From the IMG/VR virus record IMGVR_UViG_3300035034_001463, positions 22,271 to 86,270 of that record: a stretch of DNA of 64,000 nucleotides, one strand, 5' to 3'. Origin of the DNA: a virus. The notes under the pieces are model-generated. The model worked only from the letters and a program-made list of their open reading frames with translations, searched no databases and was not told where the DNA came from. The first letter of the stretch is position 1; each line of letters starts with the position of its first letter. Both the position numbers and the translations under genes were made by a program. Positions 12,407 to 63,197 of the stretch are shown one piece after another.

Positions 12407-13042
12407 ATGTCAATCTCATCACTATCAAAGATCACTGTTCCATTAGCGAGCGACCAATCAGCGGTCGCTCAGGGACAGCTGATGCCAAAGCTTCAGTATC
12501 GCTTTAGGGTAACACTGGAAAACTTTGGAGTAACAACACCAAGAACTGAACTTACTAAGCAAGTTGCGGATGTAACTCGACCAAACTTGTCGTTTGAAGA
12601 AATTACGATCGACGTTTATAACTCACGTAGTTATTTGGTTGGTAAGCATACTTGGGAACCAATTACTTTAAACTTGCGCGACGACGTCGGGGGAAACGTA
12701 CAAAAGCTCGTAGGCGAGCAAAATCAGAAACAATTCGACTTCCAAGAACAAGCAAGCGCAGCATCCGGTATCGACTATAAGTTTACCACAAGGATTGAAA
12801 TGCTTGATGGAGGTAATGGGCAATTCCAACCAACAGTACTTGAAACATGGGAACTTTACGGTTGTTTAGTACAGAATACTAACTGGAATTCATTAGCATA
12901 TAATTCAAATGAACCAGTATTGATTACATTGTCTATTCGTTATGATAATGCAGTACAGACACCACAAGGAACTGGTATTGGTACAAATGTTGGACGTACT
13001 GTCAATACACTTATTACAGGTGGTGGTCTTTCAACAGGCTAA
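12407..13042 (+). CDS. gp19: gp19 tail tube protein
   Basis: Forms the inner tube through which DNA passes. The sequence MPKLQYRFRVTLENFGVTTP, then VTRPNLSFEEITIDVYNSRS and WEPITLNLRDDVGGNVQKLV are characteristic of T4-like tube proteins. It has 211 residues against 163 in T4, with an added flexible C-terminal Gly/Thr tail. A late promoter precedes it and an intrinsic terminator follows, so it can be expressed as its own unit in high amounts. Confidence 0.95.
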   Translation: MSISSLSKITVPLASDQSAVAQGQLMPKLQYRFRVTLENFGVTTPRTELTKQVADVTRPNLSFEEITIDVYNSRSYLVGKHTWEPITLNLRDDVGGNVQKLVGEQNQKQFDFQEQASAASGIDYKFTTRIEMLDGGNGQFQPTVLETWELYGCLVQNTNWNSLAYNSNEPVLITLSIRYDNAVQTPQGTGIGTNVGRTVNTLITGGGLSTG

Positions 13043-13062
13043 TGCTTAAAGATAAGTAGATC

Positions 13063-13091
13063 AAGAGGGAACTTAGGTTCCCTCTTTTTTT
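13063..13091 (+). terminator. Intrinsic terminator after the tube gene
   Basis: AGAGGGAAC and GTTCCCTCT form a 9-bp perfect stem with a TTAG loop, followed directly by a run of T residues. It separates the sheath-tube unit from the next gene. Confidence 0.9.
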
Positions 13092-13094
13092 GAC

Positions 13095-13102
13095 GATAAA
13101 TA
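13095..13102 (+). promoter_or_regulatory. Late promoter GATAAATA ending 4 bases before ATG
   Basis: GATAAATACAATATG: the box and the start codon are 4 bases apart. With T4-type spacing, transcription would start at or within the ATG, giving a leaderless mRNA for the gene at 13107. Confidence 0.6.
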
Positions 13103-13106
13103 CAAT

Positions 13107-14231
13107 ATGAGTTTAATAAACGGCTTTCTCGATAATTTAGTATCAGGTACACTTAATCCTAAAGGTAATCTTGGGGATTTTAAACATTCGTCGTATCTAT
13201 ACAATGCAAACAGTTTTAGGTTAGCACCTAAAAGTAAATTTCTTTATCAGGTAGTATTTGAACTATCTCCTCAAGCACTGGCACTTAATCCTGTTCTCAG
13301 TAATAAACACAGAGAAGAAATTAATATGCTGGTTAAAGCAGTGGATTTACCAAAATTTCAAGCACAAAGTGAGATGAGAAATCAATACAATCGAAAAAAG
13401 AACTTTCAAACGTCTATAACATATGATCCGGTGCAAATAACACTACATGATGATAATTTTGGTGTTACTACCGCATTAATGGAAGCATACTATCGTTATT
13501 ATTATAAAGATGGAAATTATGTAGATGAGAGAACTACTTCATCCTTTGATCCTAGATCTTCATATAAAGGATCAGAAATAAACAGAAAAAAATATGGATT
13601 AGACAATGGATCGAGAAGACCATTCTTTCACCGTATTACAATATATCAATTAGCAAGACAAACCTATACAGGATTTTCATTAGTTAATCCGCTTATTACT
13701 CAATGGGGACATGATTCGTTAGATAATTCAGATAGTAGTCCTACTGCTAATCAAATGACGGTTGCGTATGAATCTGTGTTCTATTTAAGAGGTAATGTAA
13801 AACAAGGAGATCCAGCAGGATTTGCTACTACACATTATGATTTGACTCCGTCACCGTTACGAGTTGCAGGAGGAGGCACAAGCACTATTCTCGGCGCCGG
13901 CGGTGTTGCCGATGGTGTAGGGTCTATTCTTGATGACATTTCTTCTGGTAATTTTGGAATAGGAAGCATACTAAAAGGTGTTAATACATTCAATAATGCA
14001 AAGAAACTTACATCAGGTGGATTAAGAGAAGAAGGTTTAAATTTGTTAGGAACTGTTGCCACAGCAGCCGCTCCTGCATTGCTCGGATCAATAAGTAATA
14101 CTGTGTTTCCAAAATCATTAGGTAATGGTGGTAAAAATTCAATTACAACTGCAACTGGTGGAAATAGCAATCCGACTGATCCTGCTTATAGAGCAAGGAT
14201 AGAACAAGCAAGATTTAATAACGGAAGATAA
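13107..14231 (+). CDS. Tube-fold virion protein (gp19 paralogue, gp54/gp48-like)
   Basis: Probable virion structural protein of 374 residues. Residues 40-130 (KFLYQVVFELSPQ, MLVKAVDLPKFQAQSEMRNQ, ITYDPVQITLHDDNFGVTTA) follow the plan of tail-tube-fold proteins such as T4 gp19 and gp54. The C-terminal third is Gly/Ala-rich with possible helical hairpins (GLNLLGTVATAAAPALLGSI), which could anchor it in a complex. It follows the tube gene and precedes gp4. A baseplate tube initiator or cap is the best guess. The start is fixed by the strong late box just upstream. Confidence 0.6.
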   Translation: MSLINGFLDNLVSGTLNPKGNLGDFKHSSYLYNANSFRLAPKSKFLYQVVFELSPQALALNPVLSNKHREEINMLVKAVDLPKFQAQSEMRNQYNRKKNFQTSITYDPVQITLHDDNFGVTTALMEAYYRYYYKDGNYVDERTTSSFDPRSSYKGSEINRKKYGLDNGSRRPFFHRITIYQLARQTYTGFSLVNPLITQWGHDSLDNSDSSPTANQMTVAYESVFYLRGNVKQGDPAGFATTHYDLTPSPLRVAGGGTSTILGAGGVADGVGSILDDISSGNFGIGSILKGVNTFNNAKKLTSGGLREEGLNLLGTVATAAAPALLGSISNTVFPKSLGNGGKNSITTATGGNSNPTDPAYRARIEQARFNNGR

Positions 14232-14232
14232 C

Positions 14233-14601
14233 ATGACAAGTTCAGGAATAAACGAACAAAATAGAGATAGCGCATCAGAAGTAAAGGAATTTTATGATCG
14301 TTATTTTGTTAAGAAATTAACATATCCAGCTAATGAAATTGATGCAGTTTTTGGATTTTTTCGTAAAAGAGGCTTTGAAGAAGAAGCAGCAAGGTCTGTA
14401 TCCGCCGTATTATTACAACAGGCAAAGTTAGATGATATTAAAGTTTTTAAATTACTTGATACACTAACCGGACTAAATCAAGTACAATTAAATTCATTAG
14501 TAGCAGAGATTTTAAATTACAATAGACCAAAGTCAAGTACACTTGGTTATCGAGTACAAGACGAAACACAATGGAATGAATCCAGAAATATAATTGTCTA
14601 A
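14233..14601 (+). CDS. Conserved T4-like marine phage protein of unknown function
   Basis: A 122-residue mostly helical acidic protein. Recognisable conserved stretches are VKEFYDRYFVKKLTYPANEI, DAVFGFFRKRGFEEEAARSV and LVAEILNYNRPKSSTLGYR, which I recall in T4-like cyanophages next to gp4. No catalytic motif is visible. It overlaps gp4 by one base (TAATG), which suggests translational coupling and perhaps a role in head or tail completion. Confidence 0.6.
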   Translation: MTSSGINEQNRDSASEVKEFYDRYFVKKLTYPANEIDAVFGFFRKRGFEEEAARSVSAVLLQQAKLDDIKVFKLLDTLTGLNQVQLNSLVAEILNYNRPKSSTLGYRVQDETQWNESRNIIV

Positions 14602-15047
14602 TGTCAAGATACGCATCGGGTAAATATAATCTTAAAAATCCAGAAAAATATATAGGTAAATCGGTTCCTACTTACCGATCCGGTTGGGAATTTACATTTA
14701 TGAAATTCTGTGACGAACATCCTAATGTAGAACAATGGGCAAGTGAGTCAGTAAGAATACCTTATCGAAACCCACTAAGCGGAAAACAGACAATTTATGT
14801 ACCTGATTTTCTTGTTTCTTATGTTGACAAGAATAGCAAAAAACATGTTGAATTGATGGAAGTAAAACCAAAGAATCAATCGTTAAAAGAAAATTTAGGA
14901 AAAAGCAAACATAATCAGGCTGCGTGGTTGGTGAATCAGGCTAAGTGGGAAGCAGCAAAAGCATGGTGTAAACAAAGAGGAATATTCTTTCGAGTAGTAA
15001 CAGAAGACGACATCTTTGCAAGCACAAAAGGAAATAGCAGAAGATAA
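14601..15047 (+). CDS. gp4: gp4-like head completion protein
   Basis: Head completion protein of the T4 gp4 (gp50/gp65) family, with a nuclease-like fold thought to act on the packaged DNA end or connector. The text KYIGKSVPTYRSGWEFTFMK, then ASESVRIPYRNPLSGK, YVPDFLVSY and LMEVKPKNQ shows the E..D..EVK pattern of a TnsA/restriction-like core. It has 148 residues, as in T4 (150). Confidence 0.9.
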   Translation: MSRYASGKYNLKNPEKYIGKSVPTYRSGWEFTFMKFCDEHPNVEQWASESVRIPYRNPLSGKQTIYVPDFLVSYVDKNSKKHVELMEVKPKNQSLKENLGKSKHNQAAWLVNQAKWEAAKAWCKQRGIFFRVVTEDDIFASTKGNSRR

Positions 15048-18298: not shown

Positions 18299-18937
18299 AT
18301 GAGTAGAAATGTAGACGGAGTTCTTGTTAAGAAGGCAAACCAACAGGAAAAATATACACAAGACCAAATTGATGATTTAGTTAGGTGTATGGATCCAGAA
18401 GATGGACATCATTATTTTTTAAGGAACTTCTTCTACATACAGCATTCTGTCAAAGGAGAATTGCTGTTTGACCCATTTTCTTACCAAACAAGATTATTAG
18501 ATAGTTATCACAAATATCGATTTAATATTAATATGTTACCTCGACAAACAGGAAAAACTACCTGTGCTGCAGGATATTTGCTTTGGTATGCAATGTTTAA
18601 TCCTAATCAAACTATTCTAATTGCGGCTCATAAATATACCGGTGCATTAGAAATTATGCAACGAATACGGTATGCTTATGAAATGTGTCCTGATCATGTA
18701 CGTGCAGGACAAACAGAATATAATAAAGGAAGTATTGTTTTTGAAAATGGTTCAAGAATTGTCGCTCAAACTACAACCAATAATACCGGTCGTGGTATGG
18801 CTATATCATTATTATATTGCTTGGACGGCGACACTACTACGGTCCAAATTCGAAATAAATTGACAAAAATAGAAGAAACTGTTACACTAAAAGATCTATA
18901 CGTAAGATTAACAGGAGCCACAAAGGTCCTAGTTTAA
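18299..18937 (+). CDS. gp17: Terminase large subunit N-part fused to N-intein (split gp17, gene 1 of 2)
   Basis: Residues 1-173 are the N-extein, the ATPase half of the packaging motor, with Walker A PRQTGKTT at 81-88 and the conserved HKYTGALEIMQRIRYAYE. Residue 174 is the intein Cys1 (18818-18820), followed by a short 39-residue N-intein, CLDGDTTTVQIRNKLTKIEE..., then LKDLYVRL and a stop. The GDT and LKDLYxRL pattern resembles the atypically split AceL-TerL intein (25-residue N-part). The break falls just before Walker B, so the gene product alone cannot hydrolyse ATP. Confidence 0.9.
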   Translation: MSRNVDGVLVKKANQQEKYTQDQIDDLVRCMDPEDGHHYFLRNFFYIQHSVKGELLFDPFSYQTRLLDSYHKYRFNINMLPRQTGKTTCAAGYLLWYAMFNPNQTILIAAHKYTGALEIMQRIRYAYEMCPDHVRAGQTEYNKGSIVFENGSRIVAQTTTNNTGRGMAISLLYCLDGDTTTVQIRNKLTKIEETVTLKDLYVRLTGATKVLV

Positions 18938-18952
18938 CAGAAAGCTTGTAAT

Positions 18953-19888
18953 ATGCAAATAAAAATTAAAAAGTTCATAGAACGTAATCAAAAAAGAAAT
19001 CAAAAACTATATCAATCTGAAATGAAAGAGCGTATTGATTATATTGTGTGTCCGGTTAGTAATCAACGATTGAGTATGATTAAATCATCTTATATCGTCA
19101 ACGTATTAGAAATGACAGTTGAAGAATACGACCGGTTGTATCCGGGTATTAGAGGTGTTAGCGAAGCAAGAAAACGAAATATTAAAATGGGTCTTAAAAA
19201 GATTGACGCAGAAACTGGCTTGTCTAAATACGAAGTTGGCCAAGTCAAAGCGAGAAAAATCTTAAAGCAAAAAGATTCTGATGGTCTAAGTGGGTATGAT
19301 AAAAAAGGTAAAAAAACTCGTGCAACACATATGGCAAATGTTGATGAATTTGGTAGGAATGGCTACCGCCGGCAAGCTGATGCCAGATTAACTACAATAT
19401 TGCCCAACGGTTTAACCATCGAACAAAATGCACACAAAAAACAGAAACAAACCTTAATTAAAAACAATAAAACAGGCACCGGTGGTGCTAGCAAACTTTC
19501 TAAAAGAGTTTTGAAACCGATTATTGATTGGTTAGATCAAAACGAAATCAAATATTATTTTGATAAAAACGAATATGGGATTAAAGATACAGCGACTGAA
19601 AATTATTATTTTTGGGATTTAACTATTCCGAAATTTAAGATGGCAATAGAATATCAATCAACGGCCTGGCATGCAGATCCAACTCTTTCTGAATCAGAAT
19701 GGAAGGATTGGAAACCACCTAGAGGTAAGAAGAAATCTGCAGATGAAGTATTAACATATGACTATAATAAAGCCCGTTCGTTATTTAAAAATAGACAATT
19801 TTTAACATATTACATCTGGCAATCAACGCAAGACCTAATCGTAAAGGAAATTATATGTTTGTTGAAAACAATGAATATGAAATATTAA
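18953..19888 (+). CDS. Homing endonuclease, VSR-like (EDxHD-type), inserted in the split terminase
   Basis: 311 residues, inserted between the two halves of the terminase. The C-terminal nuclease region is YYFWDLTIPKFKMAIEYQST, then AWHADPTLSESEW, SADEVLTYDYNKARSL and YYIWQSTQDL, matching the VSR-like family described in fractured-gene split-intein loci. The N-terminal half has DNA-binding-like helices. Its 3' end overlaps the C-intein gene by 34 bases. It probably drives homing of the whole split locus. No strong Shine-Dalgarno precedes its ATG, so expression may be low. Confidence 0.85.
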   Translation: MQIKIKKFIERNQKRNQKLYQSEMKERIDYIVCPVSNQRLSMIKSSYIVNVLEMTVEEYDRLYPGIRGVSEARKRNIKMGLKKIDAETGLSKYEVGQVKARKILKQKDSDGLSGYDKKGKKTRATHMANVDEFGRNGYRRQADARLTTILPNGLTIEQNAHKKQKQTLIKNNKTGTGGASKLSKRVLKPIIDWLDQNEIKYYFDKNEYGIKDTATENYYFWDLTIPKFKMAIEYQSTAWHADPTLSESEWKDWKPPRGKKKSADEVLTYDYNKARSLFKNRQFLTYYIWQSTQDLIVKEIICLLKTMNMKY

Positions 19889-21240
19889 CTCCAACAGGAT
19901 GGAAAGATTTCCGAGGAGTATCGTGTGCTGGTGAAAAAATTACATACAATATTGTTACAGATAATAATAGTATTAATGCAACATTGGGGCATTATTTTTT
20001 TATTAACAATGAAAGAAGAAAAGTAGCCGATTTGTTGGTTGGTGATATTATTGAAACAAATAATACCCATGAAAAAATTATATCAATTACAGAAAACCCG
20101 TCGTCGGTAGTTTATGATATAATTGAAGTAGATGAAGACAACCATAAGTTTATAGCTAATAATATTACAACTAAAAATTGTGACGAGTTTGCGTTTGTTC
20201 CACCTAACATTGCTATAGAATTTTGGACTTCTATATCACCTACTCTAGCAACTGGTGGACGTGCTATTATAACATCTACACCAAACTCAGACGAAGATAC
20301 TTTTGCTACTATCTGGAAAGAAGCAGAAAATAAATTTGACGAATATGGTAATGAAGGCACAGTGGGAGAAAATGGATTTCATTCTTTTACTGTTGCATGG
20401 AACGAACATCCGGACCGTGATGAGGAATGGAAAAAAGCAGAAACAGGTCGTATAGGTGAAGAAAGATTCCGGCGTGAATATGGGTGTGAATTCCTTGTAT
20501 TTGACGAAACTCTTATATCTTCTATTAAATTAGCAAACATGCCCGGGCGAGAACCATTACTTAACATGGGACAAACACGCTGGTATAAAAAACCAAATAA
20601 GAAATTTAGTTATGTTGTTGCACTTGATCCTTCTATGGGAACCGGCGGTAACGATGCTGCTATACAAGTATTTGAAGTTCCTACATATGAACAAATAGGA
20701 GAATGGAAACATAACTCTACAGCTATTCCTGGACAAATACGAGTACTAAGAGAAATATGTAATTATCTTGAAGAAATGTGCGGCTCCTCGTCTAACATTT
20801 ATTGGAGTGTTGAAAACAATACAATAGGAGAAGCTGCTCTTATTGTTATTGAAGATTTTGGTGAAGAAACTATTCCTGGATTGTTTGTATCAGAACCTAT
20901 GAGAAAAGGACATATACGCAAATTTCGAAAAGGATTTAATACCACGCACGGAACTAAAATTTCAGCTTGTGCTAAGTTAAAAACTCTAATCGAAAACGAT
21001 AAATTTAAAATTAATTCTAAACCTCTTATTTCTCAATTAAAGGATTTTGTTGCTCATTCTACAACCTACAAAGGAAAGAACGATCGACCAGATGATTTAG
21101 TATCTGCTATTCTTCTTACAATAAGAGTATTAACCGTAATGAAAGATTGGGACCCTGCTGTATATCAAACATTTGTTCAAGCCGACCCCGACGATTATTA
21201 CGATGTAAGACCAATGCCGATGTTTATAACAATGGGTTGA
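19855..21240 (+). CDS. gp17: C-intein fused to terminase large subunit C-part (split gp17, gene 2 of 2)
   Basis: Residues 1-108 are the C-intein: MFVENNEYEILTPTGWKDFR, TLGHYFFINN (block B-like His), VVYDIIEVDEDNHKFIAN (block F) and NITTKN with terminal Asn (20176-20178). Cys+1 (20179) starts the C-extein CDEFAFVPPN, the Walker B acidic pair. The nuclease domain begins with VVALDPSMGTGGNDAA near residue 258. After splicing the product would be about 526 residues (T4 gp17: 610). AAGGA lies 7 bases before ATG. Confidence 0.92.
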   Translation: MFVENNEYEILTPTGWKDFRGVSCAGEKITYNIVTDNNSINATLGHYFFINNERRKVADLLVGDIIETNNTHEKIISITENPSSVVYDIIEVDEDNHKFIANNITTKNCDEFAFVPPNIAIEFWTSISPTLATGGRAIITSTPNSDEDTFATIWKEAENKFDEYGNEGTVGENGFHSFTVAWNEHPDRDEEWKKAETGRIGEERFRREYGCEFLVFDETLISSIKLANMPGREPLLNMGQTRWYKKPNKKFSYVVALDPSMGTGGNDAAIQVFEVPTYEQIGEWKHNSTAIPGQIRVLREICNYLEEMCGSSSNIYWSVENNTIGEAALIVIEDFGEETIPGLFVSEPMRKGHIRKFRKGFNTTHGTKISACAKLKTLIENDKFKINSKPLISQLKDFVAHSTTYKGKNDRPDDLVSAILLTIRVLTVMKDWDPAVYQTFVQADPDDYYDVRPMPMFITMG

Positions 21241-46716: not shown

Positions 46717-48132
46717 ATGGCAACTAGACAAAATACAGACTATGGATATGATATACAAAAAGTTTATTTAGAAATGCTACTGTCTGATGCAGTAACCTTT
46801 GTTAGATGTCAAAATATATTTGATGACACACTTTTTGATAGACGCTTGCGTCCAGCAGCAAAATTTATAAATGATTATGTTACTCAATATAATGCATTAC
46901 CGTTAGTTGAAATTGTCAACTCAGCAGCTTCTACAGATTTGAGACATGTATCTCAATTAGAAAGTAATCATTATGACTGGTTAATGGATGAATTTGAAAC
47001 ATTTACGCGTCACAAAGCATTAGAACGAGCTATTATGGATTCGGCTGAACTTCTTGAAAAAGGAGATTATGGACCAGTTGAAGAACAAATAAAGAAGGCT
47101 GTACAAATTGGGTTACAAAAAGATATGGGTACAGATTACTTTGCTGACCCGAGAGGAAGATTGTTAAGCATAAAAGAAAAGAATGGGCAAATAAGTACGG
47201 GATGGGAAGCATTAGACCGAAAACTTTTTGGTGGAATGAACCGAGGAGAATTGAATATATTTGCAGGAGCATCCGGTGCAGGTAAATCTTTGTTCCTTGC
47301 TAACCTTGGAGTTAATTGGGCAAGGGCCGGATTAAATGTTTTATATCTTACCTTAGAATTAAGTGAGCCGTTGGTGTCTATGAGACTTGATTCGATGCTA
47401 ACAGACATACCGAGTAGAGATATCTTTAAGAGCATTGATGATGTTGAACTTAAGGTTAAGATGATTGGCAAGAAATCAGGCAGCGTTCAAATCAAATATA
47501 TGCCATCAGGAAAGACTGCAAATGATGTTCGGGCTTATATAAAGGAACTTGAAATAAAAGGTGGAATAAAGTATGATGTAATCTTACTTGACTACTTAGA
47601 CCTGTTGATGCCTATTTCGGTTAAAATTAGTCCAGAGAATCTTTTCATAAAAGACAAGTATGTTTCGGAAGAACTACGAAATCTAGCTATGGAATTAAAC
47701 ATGATTTTCGTTACAGCTTCTCAGTTAAACAGAGGAGCAGTTGAAGAAATTGAATTTGATCATTCTCATATATCTGGAGGGTTAAGTAAGATTCAAACTG
47801 CTGATAATGTATTTGGCATCTTTACTTCTCGAGCAATGAGAGAAAGAGGAAGGTATCAATTACAGTTGATGAAAACAAGATCGTCATCTGGGGTTGGCAC
47901 TAATATTGATTTAGGATATAATATTGACACACTTCGAATCTTTGATCTAGGAGAAGACGATGATGACGCTCCTATCAATGCAGGGATAAAAAGTGGTGGT
48001 ACATCTATGTTGAGTAAATTAAAGCGGACGGGAGCATCAGATAATGAAGATGCTCCCGAAGCTAAAGTAAGAGCGGTGTCTAGTTCTTCAAAAGTTAGAG
48101 ATTTTTTGAAAAATTACGATGCTGAAGATTAA
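46717..48132 (+). CDS. gp41: gp41 replicative DNA helicase (DnaB-like)
   Basis: Hexameric 5'-3' helicase. Walker A is GASGAGKSLFLANLG (about residue 190), Walker B VILLDYLDLL, followed by FVTASQLNRGA and HISGGLSKIQTADNVFGIFT (H4 and arginine finger region). 471 residues (T4: 475). The last 60 residues are disordered. It ends the replication block. Confidence 0.95.
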   Translation: MATRQNTDYGYDIQKVYLEMLLSDAVTFVRCQNIFDDTLFDRRLRPAAKFINDYVTQYNALPLVEIVNSAASTDLRHVSQLESNHYDWLMDEFETFTRHKALERAIMDSAELLEKGDYGPVEEQIKKAVQIGLQKDMGTDYFADPRGRLLSIKEKNGQISTGWEALDRKLFGGMNRGELNIFAGASGAGKSLFLANLGVNWARAGLNVLYLTLELSEPLVSMRLDSMLTDIPSRDIFKSIDDVELKVKMIGKKSGSVQIKYMPSGKTANDVRAYIKELEIKGGIKYDVILLDYLDLLMPISVKISPENLFIKDKYVSEELRNLAMELNMIFVTASQLNRGAVEEIEFDHSHISGGLSKIQTADNVFGIFTSRAMRERGRYQLQLMKTRSSSGVGTNIDLGYNIDTLRIFDLGEDDDDAPINAGIKSGGTSMLSKLKRTGASDNEDAPEAKVRAVSSSSKVRDFLKNYDAED

Positions 48133-48305: not shown

Positions 48306-48542
48306 CTAAGTTTGCGTATCTTCGTCTATACTAAAGTAACGACTAAGACTTCCTAATATAATAGCAACTTGAGTTTTTGATGAAAGTTTTTGATGCTCAA
48401 GTTGAATTATATCTCCGGTTAAAGTAGTAACCGAGAATCCACGAGATTTTAATTCACTTGCTATGCTTTTTATCATAGCAAGTCTTACGCCTGGCCAGTT
48501 GTTTAATGGTTCGTGAAAACGAACATAGAAATTAGTGAGCAC
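48306..48542 (-). CDS. Last gene of the minus-strand small-gene array, unknown
   Basis: 78 residues, GTG start (MLTNFYVRFHEPLNNWPGVR). It does not clearly share the C-terminal motif of its neighbours. It contains a helical middle (MIKSIASELKSRGFSV). Function unknown. Confidence 0.45.
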   Translation of the reverse strand: MLTNFYVRFHEPLNNWPGVRLAMIKSIASELKSRGFSVTTLTGDIIQLEHQKLSSKTQVAIILGSLSRYFSIDEDTQT

Positions 48543-48585
48543 ATATTATATATCATTATTATAAATTTCTATTAAAATTTTTTCT

Positions 48586-48847
48586 TCATTCTGTTACGAT
48601 CCAATCACTTAAATTAGTTGTTAGATAAAATCTTGTCAGGTCTAATTTATTTTTAAATTTTAAGACCCAATATGAAGGATCATATCCCTCAAAACAATTA
48701 GGATTTGGTGTTGGTGGCATTATCTCTTTAATTATATCTATTTTAGATTCTTTTAATCTTTCTGACATAGCACTGTGTAATATAAAATATTGATGTGTGG
48801 TATCTTTAGTTTTTTTCAAGTCTAATTTTAAGTTTTATTTCTATCAT
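48586..48847 (-). pseudogene. Family B small paralogue, frameshifted at an A7 run
   Basis: ATG 48847 overlaps the upstream stop (ATGA), giving MIEIKLKIRLEKN and then a stop. A one-base change in the A7 run (48810-48816) would join it to KTKDTTHQYFILHSAMSERL and the C-terminal KFKNKLDLTRFYLTT motif. The start MIEIKLKIRLE matches MITRKFKIVE of the next gene. It is either a true frameshift, programmed slippage or a sequence error. Confidence 0.6.
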
Positions 48848-49104
48848 AATTCTTCCTCTACTAAAGTAATCGACTTCAAAATTTGATTAATTGTTGTGTC
48901 ACTCATTAAGTATGCAGTTAGATTTTTTTCATTTTCAAAAGTTAAATTAGCATACCAAACAAAACTAAGATCTTTATTTCTTTCAAGCTGATCAGTTGAA
49001 GAAAGTTCAGCCTTATGTACAAATCTATTATCGCAAATTAAAGGGACAATTTGTATAAGATCTACTGAACTTGATTCAACTATTTTAAATTTTCTAGTTA
49101 TCAT
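48844..49104 (-). CDS. Family B small paralogue (recent tandem copy)
   Basis: 86 residues. Nearly the same plan as the next gene upstream: MITRKFKIVESSS, RFVHKAELSS, FVWYANLTFENEKNLTAYLM and the identical ending TLVEEEL. The two copies clearly arose by tandem duplication. The shared domain has the pattern F-x-x-E-x-x-x-T-x-x-L. Function unknown. Confidence 0.65.
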   Translation of the reverse strand: MITRKFKIVESSSVDLIQIVPLICDNRFVHKAELSSTDQLERNKDLSFVWYANLTFENEKNLTAYLMSDTTINQILKSITLVEEEL

Positions 49105-49364
49105 AATTCTTCCTCCACTAAAGTAACTGACTTTAGTTTCTCATTAATTGTTGTATCACTTATTAAATAAGCAGTTAGATTTTTTTCATCTTTAAAGATT
49201 ATAGAAGTATACCAAACATAATTATTATTTGAATCTTTTCCTAAGTTACCAGGTAATTTAGATGCGACCTTATATACAAATCTATTTTCGCAAATTAAAG
49301 ATACAATTTCTTCAGTACGTAATGAAGTGTTTTCAACTATCTTAAATTTTCTAGTTATCGTCAT
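49101..49364 (-). CDS. Family B small paralogue (tandem copy)
   Basis: 87 residues. MTITRKFKIVENTS, RFVYKVASKLPG, YVWYTSIIFKDEKNLTAYLI and TLVEEEL. It overlaps the following copy by 4 bases (ATGA) and the upstream gene by 14. Function unknown. Confidence 0.65.
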   Translation of the reverse strand: MTITRKFKIVENTSLRTEEIVSLICENRFVYKVASKLPGNLGKDSNNNYVWYTSIIFKDEKNLTAYLISDTTINEKLKSVTLVEEEL

Positions 49365-49599
49365 GTTCTATCACAGTCCAATTACTAAGATTAGAAGAAA
49401 GCAAAAACGCTGTCTTCTTAACGTTTGAGTCAAATTTAATTTCAATTTCATCTATCAGTGTGATCGTTTTTCTAACCCTAAAAGACGTTACATACTTACA
49501 ATCGGTTAAAGATTTAGAGACAACCTCTTTCCATTCTGTTATTAATGGATCTCTATTGAGATTTTTTATTGTTACTGTTGGAATAACTATCTCTTTAAT
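49351..49599 (-). CDS. Family B small gene with probable AUU start
   Basis: 82 residues: (M)KEIVIPTVTIKNLNRDPLIT..., ending TLIDEIEIKFDSNVKKTAFL then LSSNLSNWTVIEHDDN, close to LTTNLSDWIVTE of the frameshifted copy. Between the in-frame TAA upstream and the coding region no ATG, GTG or TTG exists. ATT (49599) overlaps the upstream stop, where neighbours have ATG overlapping a stop. AUU initiation is inferred. Confidence 0.5.
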   Translation of the reverse strand: MKEIVIPTVTIKNLNRDPLITEWKEVVSKSLTDCKYVTSFRVRKTITLIDEIEIKFDSNVKKTAFLLSSNLSNWTVIEHDDN

Positions 49600-49758
49600 G
49601 TTTGAGGGTTCTTAAAATTTCTTCGTCTTCGATTAATTCAAACGATAGTATATCTTTTATCCCAAATGTAATATCTCTTAAAAGAAACATCGTCATTGAT
49701 TTTTCGTTATCAAATGTTAATTCTAAAAAATATATAAATGTATTTGGAGGACCTTCAT
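49595..49758 (-). pseudogene. Family B remnant, truncated or frameshifted
   Basis: AAGGAG then ATG (49758) opens MKVLQIHLYIF and stops. The neighbouring frame reads FIYFLELTFDNEKSMTMFLL then RDITFGIKDILSFELIEDEE, clearly the C-terminal half of the family, without the first half. A T6 run lies at the junction. Probably a decayed copy. Confidence 0.5.
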
Positions 49759-49857
49759 TAAAATCTCCTTTGATCCTAGTACAATCTTATTACCAAAGGA
49801 GAATCCTTATAAAGTAATATAAAATAAATATAAGAGAGGCTAGATGTGTCAGAAAGT

Positions 49858-50136
49858 TTAAAAATTTTCTTTATCATAAATTACTTTCCCGTACAACTTA
49901 TCTGATAAGAAACAAGCAGTTTCGTTTTTTTCATTTTTAAAGATGACGATAAAATAATGTTCAATTCTTTTTTCTTTAAGATTAGATACACTATGAAGAA
50001 ATTTGATACTTTCTATATAAGGTTTATATGTTTCTTTGAACAAGTCTGTAAATTGATGAACAGTTTTTGGAAAGGGAATATCATTTAAATCTAACAGAAG
50101 GCGGTCCAAAACTCTTAATGTTCTCTCTATTCTCAT
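49858..50136 (-). CDS. Family B small paralogue
   Basis: 92 residues. MRIERTLRVLDRLLLDLNDI at the N-terminus, then YKPYIESIKFLHSV and EHYFIVIFKNEKNETACFLS near the C-terminus. It has the F-x-x-E-x-x-x-T core. Divergent from the other copies except in this core. Confidence 0.6.
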   Translation of the reverse strand: MRIERTLRVLDRLLLDLNDIPFPKTVHQFTDLFKETYKPYIESIKFLHSVSNLKEKRIEHYFIVIFKNEKNETACFLSDKLYGKVIYDKENF

Positions 50137-50139
50137 TTT

Positions 50140-50397
50140 TCACCATCCCTCTATTATTTTATAACGCCCAAATGAAACCATCATTAAAAATTTAGTTACC
50201 TCGATGTCTTCTTCAAAATGTATCTTAAAAACGTATTCGCGATAAACAGTTTGATGTTCATAAAAAACAAGTTCGAGATTAAAATGATTCTTCAAAGAGA
50301 TTATAAAACTAGGTATATCATAAAATCTGTCGTTGGCTAAATTATGATATTTGGCAAATGCTCGTTTGGTCATTTTCAATTCAACAACTGTTTTCAT
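50140..50397 (-). CDS. Family B small paralogue
   Basis: 85 residues. MKTVVELKMTKRAFAKYHNL, a middle helix, and YVFKIHFEEDIEVTKFLMMV near the end. It overlaps the next gene upstream by 4 bases, as do several in this array. Confidence 0.6.
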   Translation of the reverse strand: MKTVVELKMTKRAFAKYHNLANDRFYDIPSFIISLKNHFNLELVFYEHQTVYREYVFKIHFEEDIEVTKFLMMVSFGRYKIIEGW

Positions 50398-50657
50398 TTT
50401 AAATACCTACCATATGAGCTTGTTAATAAAAAGACAGTAACGTCACTTTTCTTTTTGAAAGACAATTCAAAAATATGTGGTTCGTTGAAATTATTGACAT
50501 TATTATCAATAATATAATACATTTTATCGACAACAGGATGTTCTTTTATAAATTTTTGGCTAAATTCATCTGGAGTAAAATTATGACAGGCATCTGGAAT
50601 TGAATAGATGTACTCTAAAAACACCATTGGAGGAACTAACAATCTTTGAGTTATCAT
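50394..50657 (-). CDS. Family B small paralogue
   Basis: 87 residues. MITQRLLVPPMVFLEYIYSI, KFIKEHPVVDKMYYI and PHIFELSFKKKSDVTVFLLT then SSYGRYLK. The last part closely follows the array consensus. Confidence 0.6.
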   Translation of the reverse strand: MITQRLLVPPMVFLEYIYSIPDACHNFTPDEFSQKFIKEHPVVDKMYYIIDNNVNNFNEPHIFELSFKKKSDVTVFLLTSSYGRYLK

Positions 50658-50896
50658 TTTATTATTTCTCCAATCGTATTTTTTAAAGAAAAGAAAGTAA
50701 CATCACTTTCTTTTTTAAAGAAGATTTGAAATTCATAAGGCGCGTCATTTGTTATTTTAATTATATAAGGATGCTGTTTTTTTAATTTTTTGGACAAACG
50801 ATTAAAATTGTAGTCGTTAACGAGTGGATAGAGGTTAACCTCTATCCACTCTAAGACTTCTGTAAAAGAAAGGCTAATTGTAACTGAATAATCCAT
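50654..50896 (-). CDS. Family B small paralogue
   Basis: 80 residues. MDYSVTISLSFTEVLEWIEV, KKQHPYIIKITND and YEFQIFFKKESDVTFFSLKN. First gene of this operon segment, with a sigma70-type promoter upstream. Confidence 0.6.
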   Translation of the reverse strand: MDYSVTISLSFTEVLEWIEVNLYPLVNDYNFNRLSKKLKKQHPYIIKITNDAPYEFQIFFKKESDVTFFSLKNTIGEIIK

Positions 50897-50929
50897 AAAA
50901 CAAAACCTCTTTTATAACTATAGTATTAT

Positions 50930-50958
50930 ATTATGCAGGATTCTAAAACAAGAGTCAA
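50930..50958 (-). promoter_or_regulatory. Sigma70-type promoter in the family B array
   Basis: On -, TTGACT (50958-50953), 17 bases, CATAAT (50935-50930). It would start transcription toward 50896 and the genes beyond. Confidence 0.5.
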
Positions 50959-50976
50959 GAGAAACGTTGACGATTA

Positions 50977-51282
50977 CTAGATACAATTTTCATCGTTTTT
51001 TATAAATTTTATTCTTTTTAATACTTCGGAGCCGCGTAACCAAAATAAACTTTCTTCGTGTTCATGTTCAAAATATACAAGAATAGTGTAAATTTGAAGG
51101 TTTAATTCGTTACCACCGATCATATATTTACAAGTAGAAAATTTATGATAGGATATAGAATAACTAGGACCAGACGCTTGGCTCAATTGGTCAACAACAG
51201 CTTGAGCTAACTCGTCTTCCGCCATGGATGGTAACATATCCCAGGGACTTATTCTCAAAGTTATAAAACGATCTTTTTTCAT
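50977..51282 (-). CDS. Family B small paralogue
   Basis: 101 residues. MKKDRFITLRISPWDMLPSM, then YSISYHKFSTCKYMIGG and TILVYFEHEHEESLFWLRG. The last stretch matches the family core with E-H-E-H in place of K-N-E-K. It overlaps the next gene upstream by 4 bases. Confidence 0.6.
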   Translation of the reverse strand: MKKDRFITLRISPWDMLPSMAEDELAQAVVDQLSQASGPSYSISYHKFSTCKYMIGGNELNLQIYTILVYFEHEHEESLFWLRGSEVLKRIKFIKNDENCI

Positions 51283-51590
51283 CTTACAAAGTGATTTAAC
51301 AATTGTCGGTCAAGACTGTTAAATTTCATCCAAAACAAAGTAGCATCACTTGGTTTTTCATATTCTACTGTTATATTAAAAATTGCTACGCCACGCCTGT
51401 CAATCCTGATCACGTCATATGAAATATCAAATCTTTCTCCAACACCCTTTTTTAAATCTTTGCATAATGCTTTTATTCTCCACATGTTGGATAAAGAAAA
51501 TTTAAGATCTTTATTATTAATAGGAAGCGTGATGCAACTATCCTCACTTGGTTCTTCGACTGTAAACAAATTATCAAAATTGTTATTCAT
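51279..51590 (-). CDS. Family B small paralogue
   Basis: 103 residues. An extra N-terminal leader (MNNNFDNLFTVEEPSEDSCI) precedes the domain, which ends FNITVEYEKPSDATLFWMKF. Its ATG overlaps the stop of the frameshifted gene upstream. Confidence 0.6.
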   Translation of the reverse strand: MNNNFDNLFTVEEPSEDSCITLPINNKDLKFSLSNMWRIKALCKDLKKGVGERFDISYDVIRIDRRGVAIFNITVEYEKPSDATLFWMKFNSLDRQLLNHFVR

Positions 51591-51881
51591 CTAAAAATTC
51601 TTCCCTTCTTATAAAAACCAAGTTGTCTTCTGATATAAAAGAACCAGCCAATAACCAAAAAATCGATTCGAGCTGTGGATCATGAACGGTTACTTTCGTC
51701 CAAGGATAAAAGAACGTTTCAGGATTTTTTTCCTATTAGCACCTGAATAGACTTTAAATTGCGGGGCCGATAATTTTTCTGTTAGCTGATCTGCTTGTGG
51801 AGTGATTGCATCTTGAAAAGTAATGTCTTCAAGATCTTCTTTTTGAAAAGAAGGAGAAGTGAAATATAAATTAATTACCAT
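51583..51881 (-). pseudogene. Family B small paralogue, frameshifted at an A7 run
   Basis: MVINLYFTSPSFQKEDLEDI runs in frame to VYSGANRKK and then shifts. After the A7 run (51725-51731) the other frame reads NPETFFYPWTKVTVHDPQLE then SIFWLLAGSFISEDNLVFIR to TAA at 51583, matching the family pattern and coupling to the next ATG. About 100 residues if joined. Real frameshift, slippage or a sequencing error are the options. Confidence 0.6.
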
Positions 51882-51890
51882 AGTCTTTCC

Positions 51891-52124
51891 TCACCTTGTA
51901 TAAACAGATAATTCGCTTGTCATCAAAAATTTAGTTACTGCTACTTCATTCTTAAAATGAACGGCAAGGTCTAATCGTTGACGTAGCCCGGGATCGTTCA
52001 TTACATTTACTCTAACTATATCCGGATAACGAAATTTTAAACTTTGATCGATATTAAATTCTCGACGTGGATCACAATGATTTTGGTAAAGATGTGTCCA
52101 AAGATCAATCGGTTCTATCGACAT
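51891..52124 (-). CDS. Family B small paralogue, 5' end interrupted by a GC-rich insert
   Basis: MSIEPIDLWTHLYQNHCDPR, FRYPDIVRVNVMND and LAVHFKNEVAVTKFLMTSEL then SVYTR: full family pattern from ATG 52124. That ATG lacks a Shine-Dalgarno, and the frame is open upstream into a GC-rich stretch, so the original start may lie beyond the insert near 52480. Confidence 0.5.
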   Translation of the reverse strand: MSIEPIDLWTHLYQNHCDPRREFNIDQSLKFRYPDIVRVNVMNDPGLRQRLDLAVHFKNEVAVTKFLMTSELSVYTR

Positions 52125-52491
52125 GAATACTGTGGAAGTTTGTTTTACAAAGCCGACTTCTTGAGTTGAACCCGGTGCTGACCCAGCCGACAACCGTTCT
52201 TTCTGCGAAGCCGCGACAGCGGAAGCGGATTGCGAATTTTTGCCACGGCCCGTCATCGCCGAGACCGAACCGGCCGCTCACCCTCGGACGCCACACCGAT
52301 TGCTTCTCGAACCGCTCGCCGCCCGGCTGCACCGATTGCTTCTCGAACCGGCGATCGACCGCCCGCACCGGCTGATCAAGAGTTTGAACGGTGATTATAT
52401 TTGAATCAGACGGTTCAACCTTGGTCGGGGACGGCCCGCATGTCGGTCGGTTCTGTCGGTGCTGGCACCGGATTGTTTCTGTAATTGACAC
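52125..52491 (-). other. GC-rich insert with internal repeats
   Basis: The composition jumps from AT-rich to strongly GC-rich. A GTG-started frame from 52491 is open through it and ends at 52105. It encodes two ERFEKQSV-type copies 36 bases apart and otherwise low-complexity text (Arg, Gly, Pro). It sits between a sigma70-type promoter and a family B gene body. Possibly a small foreign insertion; I do not recognise it. Confidence 0.45.
52294..52350. repeat. Two direct copies of a 21-bp sequence, 36-bp period
   Basis: Copies at 52294-52314 and 52330-52350 are identical. They correspond to the repeated peptide RFEKQSV in one minus-strand frame. Confidence 0.75.
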
Positions 52492-52533: not shown

Positions 52534-52562
52534 AGTGTAGCAGAATCAAACTTGGTTGTCAA
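52534..52562 (-). promoter_or_regulatory. Sigma70-type promoter
   Basis: On -, TTGACA (52562-52557), 17 bases, TACACT (52539-52534). It faces the GC-rich insert and the family B array. Confidence 0.7.
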
Positions 52563-52645
52563 GTTATTAACTTGGTTGTGTGGTTCGCCGGCCGGAGCCC
52601 AGTCTCAACCGGCCGCATGCCGGCACCAAAATTCCTCGGGCCGGT

Positions 52646-52796
52646 CCGAAAAGGGGTCTGCAGGATTAAAAAAATAGCCCGCAGAAAATTTTAGTAGAAG
52701 TACTTATCAATTCTGGGTGGCCCGAAAAGGGGTCTGCAGGATTAAAAAAATAGCCCGCAGAAAATTTTAGTAGAAGTACTTATCAATTCTGGGTGG
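52646..52796. repeat. Perfect 75-bp tandem direct repeat (period 76)
   Basis: Copies 52646-52720 and 52722-52796 are identical. Each contains CTGCAGG...CCCGCAG arms that could pair. Two exact copies mean a very recent duplication or an assembly artefact. Confidence 0.85.
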
Positions 52797-53439: not shown

Positions 53440-53703
53440 TTACGCCGCAACCTCTTTCTTGCTGGCTAGCTTTGCCTTTAGAACCTCTTGTGCCTCTTGG
53501 TCTTGGAAGTCTGCGTGCTGAATCAAATACTTGACAGCGTCTGCGCTTGACATATCAGTGGGCAGCTCTACCAGTCGAATTGCTGTGTGCAGGTTTGCTT
53601 TTAGCACTTTGATGCGCCCCAGCATGCCGTTTGCAAAGCGTGCCTTAACAACGCCGTGCAATGTGGAAACGCCTGCGGTGTTAAACGTGCGGGTGATTGT
53701 CAT
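53440..53703 (-). CDS. Family A small paralogue, copy 1
   Basis: 87 residues, MTITRTFNTAGVSTLHGVVK then ARFANGMLGRIKVLKANLHT. The most divergent of the four copies, with a shorter C-terminus. Probable beta-rich domain of about 45 residues followed by a helix (DAVKYLIQHADF). Function unknown. GAGG precedes the ATG at long spacing. Confidence 0.65.
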   Translation of the reverse strand: MTITRTFNTAGVSTLHGVVKARFANGMLGRIKVLKANLHTAIRLVELPTDMSSADAVKYLIQHADFQDQEAQEVLKAKLASKKEVAA

Positions 53704-55288: not shown

Positions 55289-55621
55289 TTAGGCAGCAAC
55301 CTCTTCAGTTGCCTCAGTTGCCTTAGCAACCGTCTCAGTGACCAAGCCCATCTCAACAGCAAGTGCCTTGTCGTTCTTGATGATGAACGCATCAAACACT
55401 GCCTGCTGCTCAAGATAGCCAAAGTCGTCGTGCTCGCGCACTTCCAGTACTGCGTTGATCTTGGTCTTCGGAGCCGACAGCTCCATCAACTGGATGTCCG
55501 TGTGCTCGTTTGCCTTCAGCACCTTAATGCGCCCAGCCATGCCGTTTGCAAAACGCACTTTCATCACGCCGTTGAGGACGGAAGTGCCAGCAGTATCAAA
55601 AGTCTTGTTCGTGATAGCCAT
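55289..55621 (-). CDS. Family A small paralogue, copy 2
   Basis: 110 residues from ATG 55621, which has GGAG 8 bases upstream; an earlier ATG lies in the leader. MAITNKTFDTAGTSVLNGVM, FANGMAGRIKVLKANEHTDI and QQAVFDAFIIKNDKALAVEM. Almost identical to copy 3 at 60229 over the first 60 residues. The tail is Ala/Glu-rich. Function unknown; a small abundant early protein is likely. Confidence 0.7.
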   Translation of the reverse strand: MAITNKTFDTAGTSVLNGVMKVRFANGMAGRIKVLKANEHTDIQLMELSAPKTKINAVLEVREHDDFGYLEQQAVFDAFIIKNDKALAVEMGLVTETVAKATEATEEVAA

Positions 55622-55689
55622 GTGTAAGTCTCCTTGTGTGTGTTGTGCATGTTGCACCGTGTTGCGCGTCGTTGCGCTTTAGTCTCTGT

Positions 55690-56964: not shown

Positions 56965-57990
56965 TTACAAAGCCTTGCGCTTCATAACAGTATTCTCAGC
57001 GTACGCCTCCCAATTCTCTGGGAAAGCCTTTGCAAGCTCGGCAACCTTAATTACCGTACGCAAGCTGAGTTCTTGCAAGCGCTCTCTATTGTCGCTTACA
57101 AATTCAACAATCTCCTCGTCAACACCTTCTGCCAAACGATACTCGTGCAACATACCGTCGCCGACAATCTGTTTAATGCGCAGCATGATCTCGCGCGGAG
57201 TATTGATAGTCAAGTCCATAATATGGCAGCGCGACTTGAGCGCTTCTAAGTGATCCTTGAGCTTCTTGGATCGAATGTTCTCGAACTTGATGTTCGTGAT
57301 AAAGATAGCGGAACCCTTAAATTCAAACGTGTCTGGGATCCCTTCTTCAGTCAACTTGCGAGAGTCAGTGTTCCAACTAATGCGACGGGACTTCTTGCTG
57401 TCTAGCGCAGCTTTAAGAATGTTCAATGAAGTATCATCAAAGAACACCGAGTCACAATCGTCAAACACCAAGATGTTATCAGCTTCTTTCATCTTATACA
57501 GTTTACAGTACAAGCCAAGAGCACTCATTGCGCCCTTGCACATCTCGTACTTCTTCTTGCCAGTCATCGCTTCTTCAGTGTCGTACAGGCTCAACACTTG
57601 CTCAATACCATGTGACTTGCCAACGCCCGGCGGTCCAGTAACAAGCAGAGCACGAACATCGCCTTTCTTAGCCGCTCTTGCCATGTCATTCAACATGTTA
57701 AAGCGCAGTCTCATTCTTTCAATAATCTCTTCGTCTGTCTCGTTGCTGTTGTAGTCATCAGCTGATCGAACAGCTTCTGCATCGACTTCGTAAACATCTC
57801 CCGGTTCTTCACAACGAACCTTGATGTTGCGTTCTGGAAATCCACGCGCACTGTTGCCGTCAACAGTTACAAAGCCTCCTTTTGTGCCCTCTTTAAAATC
57901 TTCAACGAGATCAAAGATCACGTCACTCACATCAGTATCAATGCCGCGAATCTTATATGTTCCGCCGGTGATACGAACCTTTTTAGCCAT
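56965..57990 (-). CDS. AAA+ ATPase
   Basis: 341 residues. Walker A GPPGVGKSHGIEQV (about residue 118), Walker B DNILVFDDCDSVF, sensor-1 ITNIKFENI and an Arg-rich region RSKKLKDHLEALKSRCH. The N-terminal 100 residues form a beta-rich domain (GTYKIRGIDTDVSDVIFDLV). I recall similar ATPases in large myophages without a defined role. AAGGAGC precedes ATG. Confidence 0.85.
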   Translation of the reverse strand: MAKKVRITGGTYKIRGIDTDVSDVIFDLVEDFKEGTKGGFVTVDGNSARGFPERNIKVRCEEPGDVYEVDAEAVRSADDYNSNETDEEIIERMRLRFNMLNDMARAAKKGDVRALLVTGPPGVGKSHGIEQVLSLYDTEEAMTGKKKYEMCKGAMSALGLYCKLYKMKEADNILVFDDCDSVFFDDTSLNILKAALDSKKSRRISWNTDSRKLTEEGIPDTFEFKGSAIFITNIKFENIRSKKLKDHLEALKSRCHIMDLTINTPREIMLRIKQIVGDGMLHEYRLAEGVDEEIVEFVSDNRERLQELSLRTVIKVAELAKAFPENWEAYAENTVMKRKAL

Positions 57991-60228: not shown

Positions 60229-60636
60229 TTATGCGTCTTCGGTCTGCGCAACCTCTTCGGTCGGAGCAGTCTTAGCCTTGTGTCCCCGCTTCTTGGCAGG
60301 CTTCGAATCTTCAGAAGCAGTATCCGTTGCCTCAGTTGCCTCAGTTGTCTCAGTTGTCTCAGTGACCAAGCCCAGCTCAACAGCAAGTGCCTTGTCGTTC
60401 TTGATGATGAACGCATCAAACACTGCCTGCTGCTCCGAATTCGCTCCCGCGCGGATCTCCATCACCGCATCAACCTTGGTCTTCGGAGCCGACAGCTCCA
60501 TCAACTGGATGTCCGTGTGCTCGTTTGCCTTCAGCACCTTAATGCGCCCAGCCATGCCGTTTGCAAAACGCACTTTCATCACGCCATTAAGAACGGAAGT
60601 ACCAGCGGTATCGTAAGTCTTGTTCGTGATAGCCAT
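60229..60636 (-). CDS. Family A small paralogue, copy 3 (extended tail)
   Basis: 135 residues from ATG 60636. MAITNKTYDTAGTSVLNGVM, then FANGMAGRIKVLKANEHTDI, closely matching copy 2. The tail is expanded by Thr-Glu repeats (ETTETTEATEATDTA) and a basic stretch KPAKKRGHKAKTA, so this copy may bind nucleic acid. GGAG precedes the ATG. Confidence 0.7.
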   Translation of the reverse strand: MAITNKTYDTAGTSVLNGVMKVRFANGMAGRIKVLKANEHTDIQLMELSAPKTKVDAVMEIRAGANSEQQAVFDAFIIKNDKALAVELGLVTETTETTEATEATDTASEDSKPAKKRGHKAKTAPTEEVAQTEDA

Positions 60637-60693
60637 GTGTAAGTCTCCTTGTGTGTGTTGTGCATGTTGCACCGTGTTGCATTTAACTATTAC

Positions 60694-62840: not shown

Positions 62841-63197
62841 TTACAGGGCGGTGAATTCCTCAACGCCCTGTTCAGCACCGCTCTCAACAGCCCGCTCAGC
62901 CGCGTCAGCAGCCCCGGGAAGGACAATGCCGATCTCAACAGCCAGCTTGGGATCGTTCTTTGCAATGTATCGATCGAACACCGCCTGCTGCTCCACAGAA
63001 GCAAAGTCAGCACTCGCGCGCAGCGCCAGAACTGCATTGATCTTGGTCTGGGCTTCGGCCAGCTCAATCAGCTGCACATCGCAGTGATCGTTCTTGGTCA
63101 GCACCTTGATCCGACCCTTGAGATCATTCGCAAACCGCACCTTCATCACTCCGTTGAGAACCGAAGTGCCAGCAACAGTAAATGTCTTGTCAGCCAT
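62841..63197 (-). CDS. Family A small paralogue, copy 4
   Basis: 118 residues. MADKTFTVAGTSVLNGVMKV, then KGRIKVLTKNDHCDVQLIEL, QQAVFDRYIAKNDPKLAVEI. Same plan as copies 2 and 3, with a Glu/Ala tail. GGGAG lies 8 bases before ATG. Two tandem copies of a promoter lie upstream. Confidence 0.7.
   Translation of the reverse strand: MADKTFTVAGTSVLNGVMKVRFANDLKGRIKVLTKNDHCDVQLIELAEAQTKINAVLALRASADFASVEQQAVFDRYIAKNDPKLAVEIGIVLPGAADAAERAVESGAEQGVEEFTAL

What the first reader, a model, noticed from the sequence alone, without database searches (positions are those of the whole stretch)
48306..52256. Tandem array of diverged small paralogues (family B)
At least ten overlapping minus-strand ORFs of about 80-100 residues share a C-terminal pattern (F-x-x-E-x-x-x-T-x-F-L followed by a short tail). 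Two adjacent copies are recent duplicates with identical ends TLVEEEL. Others have diverged nearly beyond recognition or decayed. Amplification followed by fast divergence is a mark of proteins in an arms race, such as inhibitors of variable host defences. The pattern resembles scattered small proteins of T4-like phages but I know no function.
Basis: partly seen in the sequence, partly recalled or inferred. Interest (0 to 1): 0.7.

Follow-up and report, generated by a model that had tools for sequence, protein, structure and literature searches.

The report
Tandem array of ferredoxin-like phage miniproteins
A large virus of bacteria carries about fourteen side-by-side, strongly diverged and partly broken copies of a small uncharacterised gene that most of its relatives carry at most once; the pattern suggests a repertoire of proteins aimed at variable host targets, but no function has been shown.

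Summary
The minus strand at 48306-52256 carries 14 head-to-tail paralogues; in a leave-one-out profile test 11 of 14 outrank all 565 other window ORFs. Four are damaged: B2, B6 and B13 are frame-broken and B5 lacks a normal start. The window lies in an 86-kb virus fragment related to jumbo myoviruses (PA5oct, Atu_ph07). Its closest IMG/VR relative, L004, has a 7-gene version at the same place; many other relatives carry one probably related gene between the same helicase and AAA-ATPase. AlphaFold2 gives a confident β-α-β-β-α-β ferredoxin-like fold for the L004 B1 orthologue (pLDDT 94.9, pTM 0.82) and the same topology for window B10 (76.9, 0.67). The shared motif is β3-α2 and the tail is β4. 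No Pfam, PHROG, NCBIfam or PADLOC family fits. Between the youngest duplicates (B3, B4) the central half has dN>dS (about 2.8) while the C-terminal half is under purifying selection (0.13); single-copy relatives are purified throughout (0.15-0.24). Best reading: birth-and-death amplification of a small binding domain, most likely for counter-defence or host takeover. Family, fold and amplification are shown or well supported; the function is inferred.

The parts
48306..48542 (-). B1, last gene of the array; orthologue of L004 13348-13575 and nearest in the tree to the single-copy genes of relatives; GTG start without Shine-Dalgarno
   Evidence: 35% identity to the L004 gene, tree 94/85 with C1 and 93/87 with the single-copy genes
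48586..48847 (-). B2, frame-broken copy: ATG at 48847 and first strand in one frame, motif in another, change next to an A7 run (48810-48816)
48844..49104 (-). B3, intact, youngest duplicate pair with B4
   Evidence: 57% identity to B4; dN/dS by region
49101..49364 (-). B4, intact, twin of B3
49351..49611 (-). B5, open frame with motif but no ATG/GTG/TTG; ATT (49597-49599) at the expected start
49595..49877 (-). B6, frame-broken copy: B3/B4-like N terminus from ATG 49877, motif in another frame (49595-49786)
49858..50136 (-). B7, intact
50140..50397 (-). B8, intact
50394..50657 (-). B9, intact
50654..50896 (-). B10, intact; predicted beta-alpha-(alpha)-beta-beta-alpha-beta
   Evidence: pLDDT 76.9, pTM 0.67
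50930..50958 (-). promoter-like site before B10 (TTGACT-17-CATAAT), consensus match only
50977..51282 (-). B11, intact
51279..51590 (-). B12, intact
51583..51881 (-). B13, frame-broken at an A7 run (51725-51731); unbroken counterpart in L004 (13812-14135)
51891..52142 (-). B14, first gene of the array; ORF extends to 52256, true start uncertain
52534..52562 (-). promoter-like site before the array (TTGACA-17-TACACT, TG before the second hexamer), consensus match only
46717..48132 (+). gp41/DnaB-type helicase, anchor of the conserved place of the locus
56965..57990 (-). AAA-type ATPase (phrog_1250), second anchor

Best explanation
The array is one family of small single-domain proteins with a ferredoxin-like beta-alpha-beta-beta-alpha-beta fold. 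It was amplified in tandem, partly in the shared ancestor of this phage and L004 and again later in this phage, probably from a gene that many related jumbo myoviruses keep as one copy at the same place. Copies are born, change and break. In the youngest pair the beta1-alpha1-beta2 half changes its protein sequence faster than its silent sites while the beta3-alpha2-beta4 half is held constant, as expected of a stable scaffold with a changing contact face. The most likely use is as a set of small proteins that bind host proteins, each copy tuned to a different or changing target: counter-defence or host takeover. Well supported: family, fold, amplification, decay. Supported by one pair only: diversifying selection. 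Inferred: host-target binding and counter-defence.
For: Motif far above chance. Orthologous array in L004, and one gene in many relatives between the same helicase and ATPase. Same predicted fold for two distant members. Broken copies. B3/B4: dN/dS 2.8 in residues 14-55 and 0.13 in 56-86, heterogeneity p 0.002-0.02; single-copy genes 0.15-0.24. Precedent: T4 tandemly amplifies tifA under toxIN selection (PMC9391042); dmd and tifA lie directly 3' of the gp41 helicase in T4.
Against: No match to any known anti-defence or other family. The selection signal rests on one pair with few silent changes, and the region was chosen after seeing the data. Array genes do not diverge faster between genomes than single-copy genes. 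Nothing is known about expression, host or partners. Homology to the single-copy genes is not significant in profile-profile comparison.
Confidence: 0.45

Rival explanations
1. Neutral amplification: an accessory gene was duplicated by chance recombination, and the copies drift and decay with no adaptive role for their number or diversity.
For: Four of 14 copies damaged. Overall dN/dS of B3/B4 is 0.84, near 1. Divergence between genomes is not raised.
Against: Ten frames remain open although most pairs share under 30% identity; the C-terminal half of B3/B4 is strongly purified (0.13) and the central stretch has more protein than silent change. Several copies are shared with L004 across large divergence.
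Confidence: 0.27
2. The copies are subunits of a hetero-oligomer or a family of nucleic-acid-binding or regulatory proteins of the phage itself; ferredoxin-like domains often pair by their sheets or bind RNA.
For: The fold is compatible; the genes form one compact operon.
Against: No conserved basic face (net charges run from about -4 to +2 in the window); strong divergence and decay of copies is unusual for parts of one complex; most relatives do with one copy or none.
Confidence: 0.18
3. Relatives of Cas2/VapD-type nucleases acting as toxins or RNases.
For: Cas2 chains are among the nearest fold neighbours (5h1o, probability 1.00, TM 0.61); some single-copy genes have Asp at the end of strand 1.
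Against: Foldseek E is not significant (0.012), the Pfam Cas2 model finds nothing in the genome, and the Asp at the end of strand 1 is not kept in the single-copy family or in most array copies.
Confidence: 0.04
4. Artefact: chance ORFs in AT-rich DNA, or assembly errors that make one gene look like several.
For: Two breaks sit next to A7 runs, and GC changes sharply at the array's upstream edge.
Against: A coding signature (dN/dS 0.13 in the C-terminal half), an orthologous array in an independent GC-rich contig, and a confident fold. Other A7 runs in the array leave frames intact.
Confidence: 0.03

Closest known systems
T4 TifA (gp61.4) and the dmd-tifA-adfA anti-toxin island next to gene 41
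   Same: Small phage proteins (TifA 85 aa) encoded directly 3' of the gp41-type helicase gene; tifA is known to become tandemly amplified under selection by a host defence (PMC9391042).
   Different: No sequence similarity to the family; the T4 genes lie on the same strand as gp41; the T4 amplification consists of fresh repeats, not diverged paralogues.
T-even internal proteins (Ip1-3 and relatives)
   Same: Variable sets of small non-essential phage proteins, at least 10 reported, some with anti-restriction function (PMC12373910).
   Different: They carry an N-terminal capsid-targeting signal and are injected; sequence and fold were not compared here.
Single-copy gene ('D') at the same place in related uncultivated jumbo phages (for example L065 13940-14152, L041 13242-13442)
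   Same: Same place between helicase and ATPase, same strand, same apparent order of elements; the tree groups D with B1/C1.
   Different: One copy, under purifying selection; an invariant Gln of D is absent from the array. D is itself unnamed.
Cas2 / VapD and designed ferredoxin-like proteins (PDB)
   Same: Fold class only.
   Different: No significant score, no Cas2 Pfam match, no kept catalytic Asp.

Membership tests
Ferredoxin-like fold (fold class, not a homologous family) | beta-alpha-beta-beta-alpha-beta order of elements in one sheet with two helices | tested here: met
   (pLDDT 94.9, pTM 0.82) for the L004 B1 orthologue; (76.9, 0.67) for B10; fold neighbours are ferredoxin-like. Other copies were not modelled.
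Same family as the single-copy D genes of relatives | Homology of array copies to D | tested here: inconclusive
   Place and strand shared; tree 93/87 with long-branch warning; B/C profile finds L007 at E 0.006 and L092 at 5e-4; but hhalign E 0.1-0.22 and D-only profile E 21 for C1
Cas2 / VapD | Match to the Cas2 Pfam model | tested here: not met
   and (no hit)
Cas2 / VapD | Catalytic Asp at the end of strand 1 kept throughout | tested here: not met
   Variable in D and in the array; the feature itself is from general knowledge
Known phage anti-defence proteins (TifA, Dmd) | Sequence homology | tested here: not met
   (E 13 or worse)
Known phage anti-defence proteins (general) | Inhibits a host defence | not testable with these tools
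   needs expression and plaque assays
T-even internal proteins | N-terminal capsid-targeting signal | not tested
   no model of the signal at hand; the frames begin directly with strand 1

The most novel reading that the evidence does not exclude
The locus is a diversity-generating repertoire made by tandem duplication: one small ferredoxin-like scaffold with a constant half and a rapidly changing contact half, multiplied so that a jumbo phage carries many binders against variable host defences, with old copies left as broken genes.
Probability: 0.3. Interest if true: 0.75.

Novelty: new variant of a known kind. Interest (0 to 1): 0.5.

Why it matters
If the copies are host-target binders, the array is a natural library of small stable scaffolds with a visibly variable half. 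It would give a ready set of candidates for counter-defence tests, and a natural case of the amplify-then-diverge route of which the T4 tifA experiments showed the amplification step. Even without that, it defines a small protein family with a predicted fold that matches no entry in the four family catalogues searched.

Tried and rejected
Close relatives of single array copies were sought in IMG/VR, GTDB genomes and cultured phages: none. A scan with B1+C1 found only the L004 contig again. Cultured relatives PA5oct, Atu_ph07 and Phosso have no family member. The idea that array copies diverge faster between genomes than single-copy genes was tested and dropped: B1/C1 35% at helicase 83%, single-copy genes median 37% at helicase 70-88%. 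Homology to TifA/Dmd rejected. Cas2 membership rejected. Duplication of a two-gene block (B6-B5 and B3-B2) is suggested by protein similarity (B6 like B3/B4, B5 like B2), but the DNA shows only short matches, so it is not claimed. A7 runs as phase-variation switches were considered: two breaks sit at such runs, but other A7 runs in the array leave frames intact, so ordinary slippage is enough. Literature searches gave nothing on such arrays in phages.

Full report
OBSERVATION. The window is part of an 86,270-base virus record, positions 22271-86270. On its minus strand, next to a plus-strand gp41/DnaB-type helicase (46717-48132), lie 14 small head-to-tail frames of about 75-105 codons, several overlapping by four bases. 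I name them B1 (48306) to B14 (about 52142). A profile of the shared C-terminal block, built each time without the copy tested (and without its twin for B3/B4), puts 11 of 14 above all 565 other window frames. B2 is beaten by one frame; B1 and the broken B13 fail. Both failures are resolved by the relative L004: B1 has a 35%-identical orthologue there that does carry the motif, and B13 matches an unbroken L004 gene (z 9.1).

DECAY. B2 has its ATG (48847) and a first strand MIEIKLKIRLEKN in one frame and the rest in another, with an A7 run at the change. B13 changes frame at another A7 run. B6 has an ATG at 49877 with a B3/B4-like N terminus (MIKKIFKLSDTSSL) in one frame and its motif in another. 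B5 has no ATG, GTG or TTG and shows ATT at the expected place. Assembly error cannot be excluded without reads.

RELATIVES. The helicase is 53% identical to that of Pseudomonas phage PA5oct and 51% to that of Agrobacterium phage Atu_ph07, both with genomes above 280 kb. IMG/VR gave 80 helicase and 80 ATPase relatives. In about 28 loci both anchors lie 2-9 kb apart, mostly in the convergent arrangement of the window. L004, the nearest (helicase 81-83% identical), has seven members on the minus strand at 12747-14686. Other relatives have one small gene at this place. In a search of 50 records with the family profile, 20 had a match: L004 with six, one record with two weak ones, the rest with one. 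As far as seen, the expansion is confined to this phage and L004. Cultured PA5oct, Atu_ph07 and Phosso have no member. Many records are fragments, so absence is not proof.

FOLD. With alignments made only from window and fetched loci, AlphaFold2 gives the L004 B1 orthologue as E2-9 H17-33 E37-42 E45-49 H53-64 E70-74 with pLDDT 94.9 and pTM 0.82, and window B10 in the same order with an extra helix, pLDDT 76.9 and pTM 0.67. This is the ferredoxin-like order. Foldseek finds only fold-level neighbours (PDB best E 0.006; Cas2, designed ferredoxin folds). Pfam, PHROGs, NCBIfam and PADLOC give nothing above cut-off or convincing.

DESCENT. A tree of array, L004 and single-copy proteins puts B1 with L004 C1 (94/85) and both next to the single-copy genes (93/87), with long-branch warnings. 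The B/C profile finds L092 (E 5e-4) and L007 (0.006) among 3212 background frames, but profile-profile comparisons between single-copy and array alignments are not significant (E 0.1-0.22). I hold common descent probable, mainly because place, strand and apparent elements agree. B1/C1, B13/C3 and the B11/B12/C2 similarities suggest that part of the amplification predates the split from L004; B3/B4/B6 and B8/B9/B10 look specific to this phage.

SELECTION. B3 and B4 have the same length and align without gaps. Over residues 14-55 dN is 0.54 and dS 0.19 (ratio 2.8, one-sided Fisher p 0.02); over residues 56-86 dN is 0.09 and dS 0.70 (ratio 0.13). Shuffling codons along the gene, with the best window chosen each time, gives p 0.002-0.02 for the excess of protein changes in one stretch. 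Because dS is not lower at the conserved end, gene conversion of that end does not explain the pattern. Close pairs of single-copy genes have dN/dS 0.15-0.24. This is one pair with few silent differences, and the region boundary was chosen by eye. Between genomes, array genes do not diverge more than single-copy genes at similar helicase distance.

MECHANISM. A small scaffold kept constant on one half and changing on the other, multiplied in tandem, with broken copies, fits proteins that must follow changing partners. Host defence proteins are the likeliest partners of this kind for a phage. T4 shows the first step: under toxIN selection it tandemly amplifies the segment with tifA, an 85-aa ToxN inhibitor (PMC9391042), which with dmd lies directly beside gp41. 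T-even phages also carry variable sets of small internal proteins, some of them anti-restriction (PMC12373910). These are analogies: TifA and Dmd do not match the family, and internal proteins were not compared by sequence. I give counter-defence or host takeover about 0.45, neutral amplification 0.27, assembly, regulatory or nucleic-acid-binding roles 0.18.

VERDICT. It is a family found in no catalogue searched, with a predicted fold and an unusual tandem expansion; its function remains to be tested.

Noticed in passing
window 52100-52400: Sharp GC change: about 27-37% to the left (helicase third positions 25% GC), 44-50% to the right (ATPase third positions 52%). The gene order fits relatives, but a chimeric contig is not excluded, since L004 ends before the ATPase.
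   Followed up: partly
window 52636-52787: 76-base direct repeat, two adjacent copies 95% alike, upstream of the array.
   Followed up: no
window 53440-53703, 55289-55657, 60229-60672, 62841-63197: A second set of minus-strand paralogues (TSVLNGVMKVRFANGMAGRIKVLKA...); the three copies scanned match no PHROG.
   Followed up: partly
window 48542; L004 13575; single-copy genes in L007, L009, L041, L065 and others: B1-type genes lack a clear Shine-Dalgarno sequence, and an AT-rich, often TATA-like stretch abuts the start codon; possibly leaderless.
   Followed up: partly
window 18299-21240: The large-terminase-like gene appears split by an insertion: the first part runs on into CLDGDTTTVQIRNKL, a separate ORF lies at 18953-19888, and the second part begins with an intein-like stretch ending HKFIANNITTKNCDEFAFV.
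   Followed up: no
L043 15057-15320, L047 12606-12872, L056 14723-15067, L160 3233-3505: Another small protein type in relatives ends in a similar strand-helix motif (AFKxxxxKTLFLLRW/NYS) without a fourth strand; relation to this family unclear.
   Followed up: no
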